Of a stretch of 35,154 nucleotides of DNA, positions 4,166-27,217 are shown piece after piece. Origin of the DNA: Mariprofundaceae bacterium (GTDB taxonomy: Bacteria; Pseudomonadota; Zetaproteobacteria; Mariprofundales; Mariprofundaceae); the NCBI GenBank assembly GCA_030950905.1, contig JAUZQQ010000075.1:1-35154 (forward strand), read 5' to 3'. Every line of letters begins with the position of its first letter. Within the stretch, counting starts at the first letter, position 1. The translations under genes and the position numbers were made by a program. The notes under the pieces are model-generated. The model saw nothing but the letters and a program-made list of their open reading frames with translations. It ran no database searches and was not told the origin of the DNA.

Positions 4166-4607
4166 ATGATTACCCACGCGCAAATCTTTGTGTTGGGTAA
4201 ATAAAATCGCATCTGTTTGTTACCTGACGTTGTCCAAGTATAGTGGACGCCAAGTCAAGGACAATTAATGTTTTTCCTTTTACCCTCTTACCCTTTGTCT
4301 GCTTGCTGGCCTCTAGGTTTTCTTGATTTTCCAGCAAAAAATACCTGATCACTACGCTGGGTATCCTTTTTCGACTTTTTGCTCTCGCATCTGAGCTTGT
4401 TCTTTGGCAGCCCGAAATGCTGCGATAAGCTTTTTGTTTCGCTCGACAGCGCGAGCGTGCTGTAGTTTATATTACATATTGCCTATGTGTAGAACGAATG
4501 TTTACGGCAACACTTTTCAACCATGGCGCAACCTATTGTAATCATTGCTGTCCCGTCTTAAACGGGAAGCTGAAAAATTTAAACCGTATTTATGCAAGGG
4601 GCGATTG
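4166..4607. other. Long intergenic stretch with no convincing gene
   Basis: About 440 bases separate the ATPase from the next membrane-protein gene. A minus-strand frame at 4352-4471 has the coding-like composition HARAVERNKKLIAAFRAAKE but no start codon, and may be a decayed gene tail. TTGTCC and GGACAA near 4230-4263 form a short inverted pair. The only clear structured element is the repeat at 4548-4571. No tRNA or intact ORF is seen. Confidence 0.5.
4548..4571 (+). repeat. Solo copy of the outer arm of the 2737-2902 repeat
   Basis: The segment CTGTCCCGTCTTAAACGGGA with AGCT following closely resembles the right outer arm at 2879-2902 (TTGTCCCGTCTTAAAAGGGA then AGCC), with one base missing and a few changes. 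It is also internally palindromic (TCCCGT / ACGGGA). With the first element it brackets the DUF4143 ATPase gene in about 1.8 kb. Confidence 0.65.
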
Positions 4608-5816
4608 GTGAAACAACAGCAATTTTCAATTTGTTTATCAGGAAGGGTTCTCGACGGTTTTGATGCCAGCGCAACACATCAATCTTTTGCGAAGTTATTT
4701 CACATTGAAAACAACAAAGCCAAGCGCATGTTGAGTGGTACACCTGTTTGCTTAAAGAAAAAATTTGATCGCAAAAACATTGCCCTGATTAAAAATAAAT
4801 TAACCAGTATCGGGGTTGAATGCCGAATAGAAGCCATTAAAGAAAATACTGATGTTGGTGAAAAACCTAAGCTGTCAGTGGTCGAATCTAAAAAGAGTGA
4901 TGTGAAATATTGTGAGCAGTGCCATGGCAAACTTGATTCACTCGCAATATGCCCTGACTGCGCCCCGCCAGAAGAGCAAGACCTAGCTGAAACTCAAGAT
5001 CAACCAGCCATGCTACTTGGTCTTTCCAAGCGCCCTGTTTCCATACTTATTACCATAGGGTGCTTTGCTGTCGCGGCGTTATTTACAGGTGTTATTCACC
5101 TCATGAATATAAAGCTTGATGGCGTGATCTATTCCTTGTTGATCAATGAGCTGATTTATTTTGCCATTGTATGGGCTATACTTAAAGCATTTCGAATCGG
5201 TTGGTTTGCCGCAATACTATTTTTTACTACGAATATCTATGACGCACTGGGTTATAGTCTTGCTATCAATAGCGTGACCCTTGAATATTTTATTCCACTG
5301 CTGACTTCGCTTATTGGTTTTATCAGTCTTTTGATGCCATCAACCTTACGCATACTTGAGTTTGATCGAATAGATAACTTTCTTAACAAAACGGGTCGCC
5401 CTGTTCATGTGGCGATGCCCATGATCTTTCTGCTCATCCTCTCATTTTCAGTCGACAGTTCAAAAAACGAATCGTTTGTACTTCAAGCCTCTCAATTTAT
5501 CAGTTTTGGGATATGGGAGGTGCAAACAAGCGTACCGCCCTATCTATATGATCAAATTCGTAACGATTGGCCAAATGAGAAGGCGCTTCCAGTTTCTGAT
5601 AGCAAGTTTATTAAAAGTGCCACGTTCAAAGAGGGAAATATGCTTGATGTACACTATTTAGATAACCCGTATCTAAAAAATGCTTCAATACAGCTGAAAT
5701 TTTCTGATGATGGCACTTTATTACAATGTTTTACCGATAATATCCCAGGAAATTTGATCAACCCGACATGTATTAACTGCCAATGTGATGCCTCATCCTC
5801 CTCTATGCTGAGGTAA
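4608..5816 (+). CDS. Polytopic membrane protein with zinc-ribbon-like motif and possible pilin-like C-terminus
   Basis: Unnamed protein of 402 residues from the GTG at 4608. Residues 1-75 form a soluble domain (FSICLSGRVLDGFDASATHQ, then TPVCLKKKFDR and IGVECRIE) of a kind found at the N-terminus of other proteobacterial membrane proteins. Cys pairs CEQC (102-105) and CPDC (115-118) suggest a zinc ribbon. About four to five hydrophobic segments lie between 143 and 281. The C-terminal 120 residues follow the last segment and contain SATFKEGNMLDVHYLD, LKFSDDGTLLQCF and NIPGNLINPTC; the spacing Cys374 to Cys388 recalls the C-terminal disulphide loop of type IV pilins. GTG 4608 is preferred because AAGGGG precedes it by six bases. 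A longer TTG start at 4545 would read through the repeat. Function unknown. Confidence 0.7.
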   Translation: MKQQQFSICLSGRVLDGFDASATHQSFAKLFHIENNKAKRMLSGTPVCLKKKFDRKNIALIKNKLTSIGVECRIEAIKENTDVGEKPKLSVVESKKSDVKYCEQCHGKLDSLAICPDCAPPEEQDLAETQDQPAMLLGLSKRPVSILITIGCFAVAALFTGVIHLMNIKLDGVIYSLLINELIYFAIVWAILKAFRIGWFAAILFFTTNIYDALGYSLAINSVTLEYFIPLLTSLIGFISLLMPSTLRILEFDRIDNFLNKTGRPVHVAMPMIFLLILSFSVDSSKNESFVLQASQFISFGIWEVQTSVPPYLYDQIRNDWPNEKALPVSDSKFIKSATFKEGNMLDVHYLDNPYLKNASIQLKFSDDGTLLQCFTDNIPGNLINPTCINCQCDASSSSMLR

Positions 5817-6139: not shown

Positions 6140-8857
6140 ATGCCACACATTTTACTTAAAACAGTTGCTCTGGTTCTGCTAACCATCATGGCGTATATGT
6201 TTTTTTCAGATGAAGATGCACCCAAACCTCGCCACGAACTAAAAAGTCTGACACCCCATGCAAAAGAGACAAGTGATTTGATGCAAATCAAGTCGCCAAT
6301 ACCTGTCGATGCTGCAAAAGAAACGCCAATAAAACCAGCTTCATCCGCCGATAGCGTAAAAGCTACAGCTTCCACAAAAGCCGCAAATACAGGTATAGAT
6401 CAGACGGAAAATGCGAATGAAATCGGTGTGTTGGAGTTTTTTCCAAAATCTTCGCTGGTATGTAATATTGGCATGAACTTGACGGTGCATGTGTTCAGCT
6501 TTCAAAAGGAAACAATGAAAATCAAAGACCTGAGCAAGAAAGCTTCATGGTTGATTGAAAAACCCAAGGTTGCACGCATTCAAAATGGTTTACTGCATTG
6601 CTTGACAGTAGGGAAGAGCAAGGTCGAGGCCGTTATTGGCGGCCGTAAAAAAACAGGGAGTATTGAGGTTTTTGATAGCCCTATCCGTTCGCTTTCGCTA
6701 TCAGCTTCTAAAAAAATCACCCTTGGCTCATTAATTAATAATGAAGTGAAAGTATACCTCAACCTTCGTAATAAAAGACGTATAATAGTAACTGATGCAA
6801 AATTTGAACTCTCTGATTCTTCGAAGGCAGAATTCCAACATCCCTTTTCAGGCTTCACGCTATTACGGGGTCAAGGTTTGGGAACCGTTCGCTTATATGC
6901 CAAATGGCAAGGTTTCTCTGCCTATCAAGATGTATCCATTGTCGCCCAACCTCGGTATTCATCGATTCACATTCAAGCAATTGACGAACATTTTAAGGCT
7001 CAAAAGTCAGCTGATCTTATGATGGGAGACGAACCAAGCATGCTCATGGTTATTTCCAATAAGGGAAGAAATAATAAAGATTTTCCATCAGACCGACTTC
7101 AATCACATGTATCCAACCCTGAGGTATTACGCCTTGAGCAAATAGAAATAATGGGCATGCCTATGCCTTTTTACAAGGTGATTGGACTACAACCAGGGGA
7201 AACTGAAGTAACCATATCGTTAGATTCACTTGAAGATCATCAGCATATCAAAGTGATACCAGCCGAAGATTACAGCTTAAAACTGCAAATTGATCGCTCT
7301 TCTGTTCGTGTTGGTGATCTTGTCAAAGCTAATGTGGTTCGTTTTTTTGCAAAGGAGGTGAAGTATCAAAATAGAAAGCTGCAATGGTACTCATCCAACC
7401 CTGCCGTTTTGGCAATAGAAAAAAACACAAAGACTGGAAAAACAGAGTTTACAGCACGCGCCATGGGCGAGGCTATGATTCACGTTAGCTACAAACAACA
7501 TCAAGCCTCGGCACAAGTTCAGGTGATAGCCGAGCCAACTTCTCTTTACTTTGATCCTGCTTTTAAACAAATTAACATAAAAAGTAAATATTCCCCGAAA
7601 CTATACACTGTATACTCTGATGGTTATCAGCATCGTTACAATGCGTACAGGAGCTCCTCTACGCCGATCACCTTTTCTAGCAGTGATTTGAATGTATTGA
7701 AAGTAGATGAATCAATGACCATAAAAGTTGTTACCGAGGGTGAAGCCCTGCTTCAAGCGCATGGTTATGGCCTTGAAGCAGGGCTTCGTATTCAGGTGTT
7801 GCCTGAACAAACTGCGCAAGCAACGGGCATCAGCATCACATCCACGCCCAGTGAATTGTACCCTGGCGTGGATTTTTATTTGAATACAAAAATTCACTAT
7901 TACAACAACATAAAGCCATCCCGCAGCAGGCAAAGGCTGGAATGGCGCTCGTCAAACAGTGCTGTATTGCAGGTAAACAATGGACGCATTAAAGCTTTGA
8001 CAGCAGGTGATGCCGTGGTGACGGTGCAGATTGCAAACACCAATATTTCTAGCAGTCAGCGCATCCACGTCTCTGGTACGGCACCAAAACGATTGGAACT
8101 TGAGCAATTGGAATTCAACATTCCTCTTCATGCCACCCTCCCTCGCCCCCGTGTCTGGGCAATTTTTAGCGATGGAATGCGCAAAGATGTAAGTAAACTT
8201 GCACGTTTTAGCGTCAAAGATAATACGATTACGATCAACAATAGGCGTATATGGGCAAGAAAACTTGGAAGAAGTGAAGTTCAAATAAAGTATGCAGGCA
8301 TCAAGACCACCATGGTGGTGCATGTTCGCGACGATATAGCCCCCAACAGACTGGACTGCAATTTTCAACAATTGTTGCAACTTATGGTGAATGAAAAACG
8401 CAGATTAATATGTAGCTACCGCTATGCCAATGTCCAAATTAAGCATTGGGTAGACTTACAAAAGGTAAGAGTAAGCAACAGCGATCCCGCAGTGATTGGC
8501 ATTGTTGCTGGCGAGTCATTATTGGCACGTGCTGTTGGAACTTCATATATTGAAATATGGGCAGGTTCATTGCATGATAGTGGGCAGATCACCGTCAGTC
8601 AGCCGCAGCTATTGCGGCGAACACTGGACGTTCCCAACCAGTTGAAAATAGGAAAAAGAGAATCGTGGGTGCTGCGTGAACACTACAGCAATGGTTTACA
8701 GCGACTTTGTAGTGCTCAGGCAAACAGCTCTGATAACAATATATTTCGTGCTTACGGTGGGAATGCATACCTCATCCCAAAAAGTACTGGGGCGGCTACG
8801 CTGCATGTATATTGCAAGGGTATACATTATCAAAAACTTATTTCTGTAGTACCGTAA
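6140..8857 (+). CDS. Large membrane-anchored or exported protein with multiple Ig-like (BIG2-type) domains
   Basis: A 905-residue protein. Residues 5-22 form one hydrophobic helix (LLKTVALVLLTIMAYMFF) after a short basic start, followed by a Pro/Ala/Lys/Thr-rich linker to about residue 95. This suggests a signal anchor with the rest in the periplasm or outside; no lipobox is seen. The remainder is a series of about eight beta-rich repeats of some 80-100 residues with the bacterial Ig-like group 2 pattern, for example LQWYSSNPAVLAIEKNTKTG then FTARAMGEAMIHVSY, and LEWRSSNSAVLQVNNGRIKA then LTAGDAVVTVQI. Such proteins act in adhesion or surface architecture, but no adhesin motif or anchor for sortase or type I/V secretion is visible. 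The start is supported by AAGGTG. A 16-bp perfect inverted repeat lies inside the coding region (7742-7787). Confidence 0.82.
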   Translation: MPHILLKTVALVLLTIMAYMFFSDEDAPKPRHELKSLTPHAKETSDLMQIKSPIPVDAAKETPIKPASSADSVKATASTKAANTGIDQTENANEIGVLEFFPKSSLVCNIGMNLTVHVFSFQKETMKIKDLSKKASWLIEKPKVARIQNGLLHCLTVGKSKVEAVIGGRKKTGSIEVFDSPIRSLSLSASKKITLGSLINNEVKVYLNLRNKRRIIVTDAKFELSDSSKAEFQHPFSGFTLLRGQGLGTVRLYAKWQGFSAYQDVSIVAQPRYSSIHIQAIDEHFKAQKSADLMMGDEPSMLMVISNKGRNNKDFPSDRLQSHVSNPEVLRLEQIEIMGMPMPFYKVIGLQPGETEVTISLDSLEDHQHIKVIPAEDYSLKLQIDRSSVRVGDLVKANVVRFFAKEVKYQNRKLQWYSSNPAVLAIEKNTKTGKTEFTARAMGEAMIHVSYKQHQASAQVQVIAEPTSLYFDPAFKQINIKSKYSPKLYTVYSDGYQHRYNAYRSSSTPITFSSSDLNVLKVDESMTIKVVTEGEALLQAHGYGLEAGLRIQVLPEQTAQATGISITSTPSELYPGVDFYLNTKIHYYNNIKPSRSRQRLEWRSSNSAVLQVNNGRIKALTAGDAVVTVQIANTNISSSQRIHVSGTAPKRLELEQLEFNIPLHATLPRPRVWAIFSDGMRKDVSKLARFSVKDNTITINNRRIWARKLGRSEVQIKYAGIKTTMVVHVRDDIAPNRLDCNFQQLLQLMVNEKRRLICSYRYANVQIKHWVDLQKVRVSNSDPAVIGIVAGESLLARAVGTSYIEIWAGSLHDSGQITVSQPQLLRRTLDVPNQLKIGKRESWVLREHYSNGLQRLCSAQANSSDNNIFRAYGGNAYLIPKSTGAATLHVYCKGIHYQKLISVVP
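7742..7787. repeat. Perfect 16-bp inverted repeat inside the Ig-like gene
   Basis: GAAGCCCTGCTTCAAG (7742-7757) is repeated exactly in inverse at 7772-7787 with a 14-base spacer. It encodes GEALLQAHGYGLEAGL. Such a GC-rich stem in the middle of a coding region could form a strong mRNA hairpin. Confidence 0.8.
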
Positions 8858-23242: not shown

Positions 23243-24904
23243 TTACGATTCTGATTCATAATTTAATCGTGATAAGGTGGATCGTATGGGCAATATAAAC
23301 TCGGCTGTCATCGATAATGTATGCACACCCATGTTCAAAAAGAATTTTGTCCAAGCACTGTTGCTTGCCAACTCGCCACAAATTGAAACTGGGATGGCTG
23401 CATTTTTTGCCGCTTGAATGGTCAACGCTATCATCTTTTTAATGGCTGGGTTATCGGCCGTGTAGTAGGCCTTGCATGCTTCATTATTGCGGTCAGCAGC
23501 CATGGTATATTGGATTAAATCATTGCTACCAATAGAGAAAAAATCTGAAACTTGGCTTAATTTATCGGCAATCATCACGGCAGCGGGGACTTCGATCATA
23601 CACCCCAACAAAGGAAGTGTAGTTATTTCCAAATCGATGGCGAAGCGCTGCAATAATTTACGCACTGCTTCCATTTCAATCTCAGAACTGACCATGGGAA
23701 CCATGATGCTGATCGCGCCATGGCGGGAAGCTCGCAACAGTGCGCGCAATTGGGTTTTCAATACTTGAGGCCAAGTAAGCAGCAAACGTATGCCACGCAG
23801 ACCCAGCGCAGGATTTTCATGGCTCGGGCTATTGCCCGTTAATTGTTCAAACAAAAGGGGCTTATCTGCGCCAATATCCAACAAGCGAAAAACGCAGGGG
23901 CGACCTTGCATTAAATCAATAATTTTACTGTATTGCGCATACTGTTCATCTTCATCAGGGGGCGTACCTTTACGAAGGTAAATGAATTCGGTACGAAACA
24001 AACCGATACCATCTGCCCCCACAGCTTCAACAGCACTAATTTCTTCTTCAAACTCGACATTGGCCATCAACAACAAGGGGTGATTATTTTTACTGAGTGA
24101 TCGGCGATTTGAAAAACACTGTAAATCATCACGAATTACCGCCAAAGCACTGCGAAACAATGCACTATCGGACAAGTCTGATTGATTGGGGTGCAACACA
24201 TAACAGCAACGTTCAGCATCAAGGATAATATGATCGCCATCGTCTGTTTTACCAAGCAAGTCTTTGCTTCCCACCAACATGGGTAGCCCCACCCCTCTGG
24301 CAATAATCATTGCATGGGCATTGATGCCACCTTGGTCTACAATCAGCCCTGCGGCCTTCATGCGCCATAACATTACGACATGGGCGGGGCTAATATTATC
24401 CGTCACAAAGACAGTAGGTTCCACAGAAGTATTGATTACGGCAAGTGAAATACCGTCATTTTTCGGCGCGAGTTTTTGCAATACACGTTGCCCAATATGC
24501 CAAATGTCTTGAAATCGATCCCGAAAATATTGTTCTTGCATCGCTGTAAATAATTTTTTTACACCCATTAAATGCTTGCGCATCGCCCACTCAGCATTGA
24601 TGCATTCATTTTTAATGCATTGCCGCACGCGCCCAATAAATTCAGGGTCTTGCAGAATCAGGCGATGGGTTTCCAGTATGGCAGCAACTTCATGGTGGCC
24701 ACTGGCGTGGACTTGTTGCGACTCCAGTTGCAAGTCTTGTAGGGACTCGGCAACAGCGGTATCTAGGCGCAGTTGCTCATCGGCAACAGCATCAGGTAAT
24801 AGGTGACGCTCTTCAACAGGAATTTCTCCTGAAGCTAAAATTTGTACGCGGCCAATGACTACCCCAGAACTGGAAGCTGCTGCTGCCCCTTGATAACGAA
24901 GCAT
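23243..24904 (-). CDS. ptsI: PTS enzyme I (phosphoenolpyruvate-protein phosphotransferase)
   Basis: A 553-residue cytoplasmic enzyme that autophosphorylates with phosphoenolpyruvate and passes phosphate to HPr. It begins MLRYQGAAAASSSGVVIGRV. The swivel-domain active site reads QGGINAHAMIIARG (active His in AHA; usually GG.tsHtaI.AR), followed by DGIGLFRTEFIYL, RLLDIGADKPL, NPALGLRGIR, GCMIEVPAA, FFSIGSNDLIQYTMAADR and VSICGELASNS (catalytic Cys). Lys in DKP, Arg in FRTE and the PEP-binding residues are visible. ATG 24904 is chosen to match the family N-terminus; it is 4 bases past the HPr stop. It forms one operon with HPr and the EIIA gene. Confidence 0.96.
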   Translation of the reverse strand: MLRYQGAAAASSSGVVIGRVQILASGEIPVEERHLLPDAVADEQLRLDTAVAESLQDLQLESQQVHASGHHEVAAILETHRLILQDPEFIGRVRQCIKNECINAEWAMRKHLMGVKKLFTAMQEQYFRDRFQDIWHIGQRVLQKLAPKNDGISLAVINTSVEPTVFVTDNISPAHVVMLWRMKAAGLIVDQGGINAHAMIIARGVGLPMLVGSKDLLGKTDDGDHIILDAERCCYVLHPNQSDLSDSALFRSALAVIRDDLQCFSNRRSLSKNNHPLLLMANVEFEEEISAVEAVGADGIGLFRTEFIYLRKGTPPDEDEQYAQYSKIIDLMQGRPCVFRLLDIGADKPLLFEQLTGNSPSHENPALGLRGIRLLLTWPQVLKTQLRALLRASRHGAISIMVPMVSSEIEMEAVRKLLQRFAIDLEITTLPLLGCMIEVPAAVMIADKLSQVSDFFSIGSNDLIQYTMAADRNNEACKAYYTADNPAIKKMIALTIQAAKNAAIPVSICGELASNSAWTKFFLNMGVHTLSMTAEFILPIRSTLSRLNYESES

Positions 24905-24908
24905 GCAA

Positions 24909-25178
24909 TTAACCACCTTCGCCAAAACAATCGTCAACCAAGGCGATCAAGGCGATCAAGGCACGGTCAGCATCAATGCCCTCGGTGCGCAATAGCAGTA
25001 CAGTACCTTGTGAGGCTGCAAGCAACAAAACCCCCATAATGCTTTTACCGTTTACTTCCATATCATCCCTGCGGACAAAAACCTCGCTGCGAAAGCTTGC
25101 TGCTGTTTTAACAAACAATGCAGAAGCCCGCGCATGCAAGCCCAAACGATTTTGAATGGCTATTTCTTGTTCAGCCAT
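24909..25178 (-). CDS. ptsH: HPr-like phosphocarrier protein
   Basis: An 89-residue HPr. It has NRLGLHARASALFVK with the phosphorylated His15 and MEVNGKSIMGVLLLAAS with Ser46, the site used by HprK in regulatory systems. The C-terminus repeats ALIALIALV, encoded by a 9-base tandem (GGCGATCAA near 24942-24962). It takes phosphate from enzyme I and gives it to the EIIA encoded next door; no sugar-specific EIIB/EIIC genes are in the window, which suggests a regulatory PTS. Its start overlaps the EIIA stop by a few bases. Confidence 0.95.
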   Translation of the reverse strand: MAEQEIAIQNRLGLHARASALFVKTAASFRSEVFVRRDDMEVNGKSIMGVLLLAASQGTVLLLRTEGIDADRALIALIALVDDCFGEGG

Positions 25179-25596
25179 GAACAGAACCGTCTGGGGTGGC
25201 TGTCATAAATTCAGATGTTACACACATGTACTGCTTGCCCGTGGCGACCACATCTTTTGCAAATACTTTCACATCTTTTGCTGTTGCACGTTCGGATACT
25301 GCTTTGATCAATGTTGGAATATTAAAACCAGAGATAACCTCACAACGATCATCCGTCGCTGAGGACTGTGCGATATTACACGGTGTGCCGCCCAGCATAT
25401 CAGCAAAAACCAGCACCCCAACATCAGTCGTGCATTGTTTAATAGCCAATTTCATTCGTGCCAAAGAGTTGTCAATATCATCAGAGTTCTCAACATCAAT
25501 AGCAATTAAAAAAGATTGTTCGCCAAGTACATGCTCAACGGTCTTTTTTGACTCACTGGCAACCCTTGCATGCGCAATCAACACAATACCAATCAT
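25171..25596 (-). CDS. PTS EIIA component, mannose-family type
   Basis: A 141-residue EIIA of the mannose/fructose-sorbose fold. IGIVLIAHARVASES contains the phosphorylated His (AHARV, usually SHG), VGVLVFADMLGGTPCNIAQS is the conserved D.fGgTP.N motif, and EVISGFNIPTLIKAVS matches VISGvNLPML. ATG 25596 is favoured because GGAGTGGGT precedes it; a GTG at 25602 is two codons upstream. In alpha-, beta- and deltaproteobacteria this EIIA-HPr-EI trio usually follows hprK and rapZ. Here a restriction-modification gene lies upstream instead. It probably acts as a regulatory phosphorylation sink. Confidence 0.92.
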   Translation of the reverse strand: MIGIVLIAHARVASESKKTVEHVLGEQSFLIAIDVENSDDIDNSLARMKLAIKQCTTDVGVLVFADMLGGTPCNIAQSSATDDRCEVISGFNIPTLIKAVSERATAKDVKVFAKDVVATGKQYMCVTSEFMTATPDGSVHG

Positions 25597-25645
25597 ACCC
25601 ACTCCAGAAAACTACAATTAATTCGATTCCAATTTCTATGTGTTT

Positions 25646-27217
25646 TTAAAACCTGAGCTGCATATTAAGTTTAAAATAAATTTTCCCATCATTTTCTAAA
25701 ATTAGATTCCCAAATCTGTGCCTGCTTGTTGAGGGGGTATCAAATTTAATATTTTCAAACAAATAATTTTCTAATGACTTCTTATCTATAATATGAAACC
25801 CTACTTGTTCTCCTGTTTCTTTAACGACTATAACCCCATTTGACACATAACCTCCATCCCATTTTTTACCCGCGAAAAAGCCCAACAATATTGCAATTAA
25901 TAAGCGTTTTACTTTTACTTTCAATGTGATTAAATCAGTGTCAAAGGTGTTTATATTGTTAAAAACATTTTCTAAATTATCACTTATAGCGTTGGTTCTG
26001 TTTAGGTAAAACTCCAGCAACATGGTAGATATTATTTTTGGAATCAAACTATCCACCATGGAAAGGTTGTATTCCATTGATTCAGTTTCAATTTTACTAA
26101 ATTTAAAATCACCGCCTAGACTATGGATTTTTTCTATTCTATCTTTTAATTTTGTTCTGGTGTTAATTGAATTTACAAGGTCTATTGCATGGGGGCTTAA
26201 ATGTAAAATCTCAAAAATAAAATTGGTATTTCCTGATGCATTAAGCAAAGTAGGTTTGCTGCCTAAATATGATTTTATTCCAAACCCTTCATCTTCTTTT
26301 GATATTTGATTGTTGTTTATACTTAAAGAAATATCTGGTTTTAGTGTTTTTAAATGGGCAATCATAACCTTGGCACACGCTTTAACCGCATCAATCGCAA
26401 CACTATTGCCCAATTGTTTCATTGCTTGTGTATTTGCAACAGGAAATTCAAAACTTTCAGGGAAGCCTTGCATTTTTCTTGCTTGCTCTGGCATTATTTT
26501 TTTAACTTCGCCATCAACGAGGTAGGAATCCCAGTTTCGGCGGTCATTGATATTTGAACCTCGCCCGCCAACCCTCAACGTGAATCCAACTTCTCTGGAA
26601 CACTCGCCGTTCCAAACATCAGACATATTAAATTTCAATGGGATTTTAGGAGGAAAAGAGAAATTAGATAGTATACTCTCATTTTTAAATCCTATCATAA
26701 ATATTCGTGGTCTTAGTTGTGGCAAGCCATAATCAATCGCTTTCACTACTTTATAATGAAAACTGTAACCCAATTCGTTTTCAATAATCTCCCGAATCAC
26801 TTTGAAGGTTTTACCATTATCGTGATTGATGATACCTCTTACATTTTCTAGGAAAAAAGCTTTAGGCTTCTTTGCTTCTAATATATCAACAATATTAAAA
26901 AATAAATTACCTCTTTCTGATTTATGTGTATCATCAAATCCCCTTTTGTGACCTGCTTGACTGAATGGTTGGCACGGAAAACCTGCGCACAAAACATCAA
27001 AATCAGGCAAGTCTATAGGGTTTATTTTTCTTATATCATCATTAAACATGCCACCATTAAACAAGTTAGCATTGGATGCTTTAAAATTATGTTCGTATGT
27101 TTTTCTGGCAAAAGGATCTATTTCGGAAGCAAAAACACATTGCCCACCCAATGATTCCATTGCAATGTGGAATCCACCAATACCCGCAAATAAATCTATA
27201 AAGTTAAAATCACTCAC
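25646..27217 (-). CDS. Fused C5-cytosine methyltransferase and HpaII-family restriction endonuclease
   Basis: A single 523-residue frame. Residues 1-285 are a complete C5 methyltransferase: motif I FIDLFAGIGGF (6-16), motif IV GFPCQPFSQ with catalytic Cys (79-87), motif VI ENVRG (124-128), motif VIII QLRPR (167-171), a short target-recognition segment with TLRVGGRGS and DRRNWDSYL (213-232), motif IX around MQGFPESF (249-256) and motif X QLGNSV (268-273). From about 290 the sequence matches the HpaII endonuclease family: PD at 294-295, GFGIKSYLGSKPTLLNAS (311-328), RTKLKDRIEKI, KKWDGGYVSNGVIVV and the tail STSRHRFGNL with YFKLNMQLRF. The PD...IK spacing suits a PD-(D/E)XK nuclease site. Together they would protect and cut the same site, probably CCGG by analogy. 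Start is GTG 27217 with a weak ribosome site. The gene looks AT-richer than its neighbours. Confidence 0.88.
   Translation of the reverse strand: MSDFNFIDLFAGIGGFHIAMESLGGQCVFASEIDPFARKTYEHNFKASNANLFNGGMFNDDIRKINPIDLPDFDVLCAGFPCQPFSQAGHKRGFDDTHKSERGNLFFNIVDILEAKKPKAFFLENVRGIINHDNGKTFKVIREIIENELGYSFHYKVVKAIDYGLPQLRPRIFMIGFKNESILSNFSFPPKIPLKFNMSDVWNGECSREVGFTLRVGGRGSNINDRRNWDSYLVDGEVKKIMPEQARKMQGFPESFEFPVANTQAMKQLGNSVAIDAVKACAKVMIAHLKTLKPDISLSINNNQISKEDEGFGIKSYLGSKPTLLNASGNTNFIFEILHLSPHAIDLVNSINTRTKLKDRIEKIHSLGGDFKFSKIETESMEYNLSMVDSLIPKIISTMLLEFYLNRTNAISDNLENVFNNINTFDTDLITLKVKVKRLLIAILLGFFAGKKWDGGYVSNGVIVVKETGEQVGFHIIDKKSLENYLFENIKFDTPSTSRHRFGNLILENDGKIYFKLNMQLRF

What the first reader, a model, noticed from the sequence alone, without database searches (positions are those of the whole stretch)
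25646..27217. One-gene restriction-modification protein: C5 methyltransferase fused to an HpaII-type endonuclease domain
Directly visible: one uninterrupted 523-codon frame with all C5-methyltransferase motifs (I, IV with PCQ, VI ENV, VIII, X) in residues 1-285, continuing into a domain with GFGIKSYLGSKPTLLNAS, RTKLKDRIEKI, KKWDGG and the STSRHRF...FKLNMQLRF tail. From memory these belong to the HpaII endonuclease family. HpaII and its methyltransferase are normally separate genes, as in most C5 type II systems. Here the endonuclease part lacks the N-terminal ~100+ residues I would expect from the free-standing enzyme and begins near the PD of a PD-(D/E)XK site. This suggests a compact methyltransferase-endonuclease fusion with target recognition shared between the two halves. 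I infer CCGG as the target by analogy only.
Basis: partly seen in the sequence, partly recalled or inferred. Interest (0 to 1): 0.85.

Follow-up and report, generated by a model that had tools for sequence, protein, structure and literature searches.

The report
Methylase-HpaII nuclease fusion with deleted core
The gene belongs to a widespread, apparently undescribed family in which a DNA methylase and the HpaII restriction enzyme are made as one protein, but this copy has lost about 130 amino acids of the cutting half and most likely only methylates DNA.

Summary
Window 25646-27217 (-) is one open frame of 523 codons: a C5-methyltransferase (Pfam E=3.5e-76) followed by an HpaII endonuclease part (PF09561, 252 bits), which matches only profile positions 109-359 of 359.

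The fusion is real. About 30 related loci encode one-gene fusions of ~655-690 aa with a complete HpaII, in Pseudomonadota, Bacteroidota, Cyanobacteriota and Campylobacterota. The fused nucleases form one clade (100/100). Unfused tandem versions exist.

The window copy is not a compact design. It sits among full-length genes and lacks ~130 codons by an in-frame deletion, which removes the nearly invariant GEWxE segment. AlphaFold2 leaves residues 293-322, with the remaining D and GFGIK, unfolded, although the same segment is confident in the full-length nuclease. Other members have independent lesions in the nuclease half. Most likely this copy is modification-only; CCGG is the inferred target.

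The novelty lies in the family: proven one-chain R-M enzymes listed in 2011 were all m6A, and the only m5C one was engineered (PMC3039593). REBASE could not be searched.

The parts
25646..27217 (-). Whole fused gene, 523 aa, GTG start
26348..27217 (-). C5-cytosine methyltransferase half, residues 1-290, motifs intact
   Evidence: PF00145 and TIGR00675; alignment with relatives
26498..26680 (-). Short target-recognition region (about residues 180-240, GFTLRVGGRGSNINDRRNWDSYLVDG), unlike that of classical HpaII methyltransferases
   Evidence: alignment; same region in unfused L079, L080, L291
26339..26347 (-). Approximate junction of the ~130-codon in-frame deletion (A-tract) relative to full-length fusions
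   Evidence: lengths 523 against 653 aa in L017 and L022
25646..26341 (-). Remnant of the HpaII endonuclease, residues 293-523 plus stop; D295 and GFGIK (K315) kept, N-terminal GEWxE segment missing
   Evidence: PF09561 profile 109-359; conservation; models

Best explanation
The gene descends from a one-gene R-M system in which a C5-methyltransferase with a short recognition region was fused once to a complete HpaII-type nuclease, probably by loss of the stop codon between tandem M and R genes, and then spread between phyla. In the window's lineage an in-frame deletion of ~130 codons, probably recent, removed the linker, the former HpaII start and the first third of the nuclease. The methyltransferase is intact and should still methylate its site (CCGG inferred). 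The nuclease is most likely dead, so this copy acts as a solitary, modification-only methyltransferase with a nuclease tail. Shown: fusion, family, single fused clade, deletion and its derived position. Inferred: loss of cutting, retained methylation, CCGG, recent age.
For: PF00145 and PF09561 matches. About 30 full-length fusions. Fused clade 100/100; window nested with full-length L022 and L011 at 98/90. Unfused pairs with the same methyltransferase type. The deletion removes columns N6, G8, E9, W10, E12, at least 90% conserved across fused and separate HpaII. AlphaFold2: residues 293-322 below 50 with no strand in the window protein, but confident strands 129-134 and 139-149 in the full nuclease. 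Other nuclease-half lesions: L026 and L044 deletions, IS insertion in G269, frameshift in L047, D to N in L011. The remnant shows no excess of changes and CCGG is still depleted (0.26), as expected for a recent loss.
Against: No activity data. The remnant is as conserved as in intact members, which also fits continued use. D295 and GFGIK are kept. AlphaFold2 on a deletion form is weak evidence, and the window alignment was shallow (24 rows). The sequence is from a fragmented genome, so the short junction has not been checked against reads.
Confidence: 0.78

Rival explanations
1. A compact, still active bifunctional R-M enzyme: the shortened HpaII half cuts DNA, with the methyltransferase supplying the missing structure or target recognition.
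For: Frame kept; D295 and K315 kept; remnant not accelerated; CCGG depleted in the genome.
Against: Nearly invariant GEWxE segment and adjoining core missing; D/GFGIK strands not predicted to fold; short forms L026 and L044 lost even the aspartate; all other fused relatives keep a whole HpaII.
Confidence: 0.07
2. The nuclease tail is retained for a purpose: its C-terminal domain helps the methyltransferase bind DNA or regulates it, and only the cutting core was shed.
For: Three short forms (window, L026, L044) with different breakpoints are all in frame and keep the C-terminal ~215-230 aa; remnant conserved in the window; C-terminal helical part still modelled with confidence.
Against: Unfused methyltransferases of the same type exist without a tail (L079, L080, L291); the search was seeded with the C-terminal domain, so forms that lost it would be missed; L026 has 9 private changes in the remnant against 2 in the methyltransferase; G269 and L047 have separated the tail from the methyltransferase.
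Confidence: 0.1
3. The ~130-codon gap is an assembly or sequencing artefact and the organism carries a normal full-length fusion.
For: Fragmented genome of 114 contigs; remnant shows no sign of decay; CCGG depletion fits an active system.
Against: The gap is exactly in frame with only a short A-tract at the junction, too short to mislead a k-mer assembler (inference); similar in-frame gaps occur in two unrelated genomes.
Confidence: 0.05

Closest known systems
Classical two-gene HpaII R-M systems (HpaII and M.HpaII; [quoted passage not shown]
   Same: C5-methyltransferase plus HpaII-family nuclease; probably the same target CCGG
   Different: One gene instead of two; methyltransferase with a different, shorter recognition region; fused nucleases form their own clade; the window copy lacks the nuclease N-terminus
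RM.Eco29kI, an engineered fusion of an m5C methyltransferase and its nuclease (PMC3039593)
   Same: One chain with an m5C methyltransferase and a palindrome-cutting type IIP nuclease; shown active in both functions when engineered
   Different: Artificial; GIY-YIG nuclease; nuclease placed before the methyltransferase; target CCGCGG
Natural type IIC/IIB/IIG enzymes (BcgI, Eco57I, MmeI)
   Same: Restriction and modification in one polypeptide
   Different: m6A methyltransferases in all 12 proven ones listed in 2011 (PMC3039593 Table 2); here m5C with an orthodox HpaII-type nuclease
Solitary (orphan) C5-methyltransferases left after nuclease loss
   Same: Intact methyltransferase, defective nuclease, as inferred for the window copy
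   Different: The nuclease remnant is still translated as a tail of the methyltransferase

Membership tests
C5-cytosine DNA methyltransferase (PF00145) | Profile match with catalytic PCQ, ENV and the other conserved motifs | tested here: met
   257 bits, cut-off 22; motifs present
HpaII endonuclease family (PF09561) | Profile match above the curated cut-off | tested here: met
   252 bits, cut-off 25, but positions 109-359 only
HpaII endonuclease family (PF09561) | Complete nuclease including the N-terminal GEWxE segment | tested here: not met
   Segment absent in the window; 90% or more conserved in the other members
HpaII endonuclease family (PF09561) | PD-(D/E)XK fold | tested here: inconclusive
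   D...GFxIK motif conserved, but no Foldseek match of the full model in PDB or BFVD at E<=0.001
Fused C5-methyltransferase-HpaII family (defined here) | Both domains in one frame, fused-type recognition region, nuclease inside the fused clade | tested here: met
Type IIC R-M enzyme | Both activities shown in one polypeptide | not testable with these tools
   Sequence only; for the window copy nuclease activity is unlikely
CCGG-specific R-M system | Site recognised is CCGG | tested here: inconclusive
   Partner nucleases of the HpaII type (L079, L291) and a weak BsaWI match in L080; CCGG o/e 0.26 and 0.34 in congeners with a fusion against 1.13 and 1.18 without, but other genera are depleted without a detected HpaII

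The most novel reading that the evidence does not exclude
Repeated in-frame excision of the nuclease core turns this fused R-M family into methyltransferases that keep the HpaII C-terminal domain as a DNA-binding or regulatory module: a recurrent route from a restriction system to an epigenetic enzyme within one gene.
Probability: 0.1. Interest if true: 0.6.

Novelty: new variant of a known kind. Interest (0 to 1): 0.45.

Why it matters
The full-length relatives would be natural one-gene m5C type II R-M systems with an orthodox HpaII-type nuclease, a layout that the literature searched here describes only as an engineered Eco29kI fusion. Cutter and protector are then made at a fixed ratio, so how a newly invaded cell survives first expression becomes a clear question; one review suggests for type IIC enzymes that monomers methylate first and dimers cut later (PMC12707154). 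The window copy and other damaged members show that the nuclease half is lost repeatedly while methylation is kept.

Tried and rejected
1) Foldseek of the full HpaII model against PDB and BFVD: no match at E<=0.001, so the PD-(D/E)XK fold is not confirmed by structure. 2) PDB sequence search of the nuclease part: nothing meaningful. 3) CCGG depletion as proof of the target: first looked decisive, but further genomes of genera g2 and g4 without a detected HpaII are depleted too (both scripts stopped before their last rows), so it is supportive only. 4) Internal translation start making a free nuclease: a Met at the former HpaII start is kept in most fused genes, but the upstream Shine-Dalgarno scores are only slightly better than elsewhere in the genes. 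5) Empty-site comparison: congeners keep the PTS genes but not the other neighbours, so there is no clean empty site. 6) Nuclease query in viral contigs: no relative confirmed. 7) Literature: no natural C5-methyltransferase-HpaII fusion found in eight searches; REBASE not available. 8) Classical M.HpaII recognition region in the exceptional genomes G033 and G005: none found.

Full report
What is there. Window 25646-27217 on the minus strand is one stop-free frame of 523 codons starting with GTG. Residues 4-191 and a second stretch match C5-cytosine methyltransferases (PF00145 E=3.5e-76; TIGR00675 5e-77). Residues 285-523 match the HpaII restriction endonuclease family (PF09561, 252 bits, cut-off 25), but only profile positions 109-359 of 359. 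The genome (1.6 Mb, 114 contigs, 82% complete; a family whose named loci are Mariprofundaceae) has one HpaII-family gene and two other C5-methyltransferases of other types. The gene stands between a PTS EI-HPr-EIIA cluster and a 78-aa gene plus a recQ-like gene (recQ by eye).

The fusion is natural and widespread. A scan with the nuclease part gave 35 loci; in most, one frame of ~655-690 aa holds the methyltransferase and a complete HpaII. More were found in the window's own family, in the family of Aureispira and in the phylum of the Sulfurovum locus. They include named strains (Flavivirga rizhaonensis RZ03, Aureispira sp. CCB-QB1) and a 2.2-Mb genome in which the gene lies at ~1.92 Mb of contig 1 (L287). 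This rules out an assembly error as the source of the fusion. Classical separate HpaII genes with a separate methyltransferase occur in the same family (L005-L007) and elsewhere (L050, L051, L274-L279).

Origin. In the nuclease tree all fused members form one group (100/100), apart from five free-standing enzymes. Two unfused relatives have the same methyltransferase type with a separate HpaII gene 8-16 nt downstream: a viral contig (L079) and a Campylobacterota genome (L291). The nuclease of L079 groups with the classical ones, and its methyltransferase lies next to the fused ones (long branches, so the exact place is unsure). The former HpaII start codon is still a Met in most fused genes. 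This fits one read-through fusion of a tandem pair and later spread between lineages (inference).

The window copy is a deletion derivative. Against L017, L022, L021, L011 and L008 the window gene lacks one block of ~130 codons, in frame, with short A-tracts at the breakpoints. The block holds the linker, the former HpaII start and the first third of the nuclease. Its N6, G8, E9, W10 and E12 are at least 90% conserved over 30 fused and separate HpaII rows. The tree nests the window among full-length genes (98/90), so the short form is derived. L026 (517 aa) and L044 (571 aa) have different deletions in the same region and also lose the aspartate. G269 carries a transposase gene inside the nuclease half, and L047 has a frameshift there. 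L011 has D to N at the aspartate and L029 has E to K in GEWxE. Lesions of the methyltransferase half were seen in L030 and L045.

Consequence for the nuclease. AlphaFold2 models the full nuclease of L022 well (mean pLDDT 89.4), with strands at residues 129-134 and 139-149 that carry or follow the D and carry GFGIK. In the window protein the same stretch (residues 293-322) is below 50 with no strand before residue 323, while the C-terminal helical part and most of the methyltransferase are confident. This is a prediction on a deletion form, not proof. The PD-(D/E)XK assignment is plausible from the D...GFxIK spacing and the glutamates of the first helix, but no solved structure matched.

Age of the loss. 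Pairwise dN of the remnant relative to the methyltransferase is 0.97-1.92 for the window, against 1.06-2.39 between full-length members. The window has 2 private changes at 123 conserved remnant sites, against 1-6 in the close full-length members. CCGG is the most depleted palindromic tetramer in 178 kb of the genome (86 seen, 327 expected, 0.26). Both fit a recent loss, or continued use.

Target. The recognition region (GFTLRVGGRGSNINDRRNWDSYLVDG) is unlike that of the classical HpaII methyltransferases. The same region still sits next to HpaII nucleases in unfused pairs and, in viral contig L080, next to a nuclease with a weak match to BsaWI (E=5.5e-5, below its cut-off); BsaWI recognises WCCGGW (own knowledge). 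In the window's genus the two genomes with a fusion have CCGG ratios of 0.26 and 0.34, the two without 1.13 and 1.18. In genera g2 and g4, however, genomes without a detected HpaII are depleted too, so the association is confounded. CCGG is likely, not shown. A tandem HpaII pair of bacterial origin was shown to act at CCGG (PMC8099122).

Novelty. In 2011 all 12 proven single-chain R-M enzymes had m6A methyltransferases, and the only m5C one was the engineered RM.Eco29kI (PMC3039593). Eight full-text searches found no description of a natural C5-methyltransferase-HpaII fusion. REBASE and subscription papers could not be searched, so prior listing is possible. The family is rated a new variant of a known kind; the window's own copy is a damaged member and modest by itself.

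Noticed in passing
L149:1519-2580 (G269 contig 42); likewise L148 (G269 contig 14): An IS-type transposase gene lies inside the nuclease half of a fused gene (between HpaII profile positions 83 and 86), leaving the methyltransferase intact.
   Followed up: partly
L079:2002-4873 and 4882-5682: A viral contig carries a reverse transcriptase-like gene near an unfused fused-type methyltransferase and a separate HpaII gene.
   Followed up: partly
L080:3731-5181: A viral contig pairs the same methyltransferase type with a 206-aa protein weakly like BsaWI/EcoRII-C nucleases, suggesting exchange of nucleases between methyltransferases of one target.
   Followed up: partly
genera g2 and g4 of the window's family (for example G005, G152, G033): Strong depletion of CCGG, GGCC and GATC in genomes without a detected HpaII gene; cause not found.
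   Followed up: partly
window 23243-25602 (-): PTS EI, HPr and a mannose-type EIIA in a row next to the fusion; no EIIB/EIIC seen in the window, as in regulatory PTS.
   Followed up: no
window 6140-8857 (+): 905-aa protein with only weak Ig-like (Big_2) and hyaluronate-lyase beta-domain matches; otherwise unassigned.
   Followed up: no
window 4545-5816 (+): 423-aa frame without any Pfam match.
   Followed up: no
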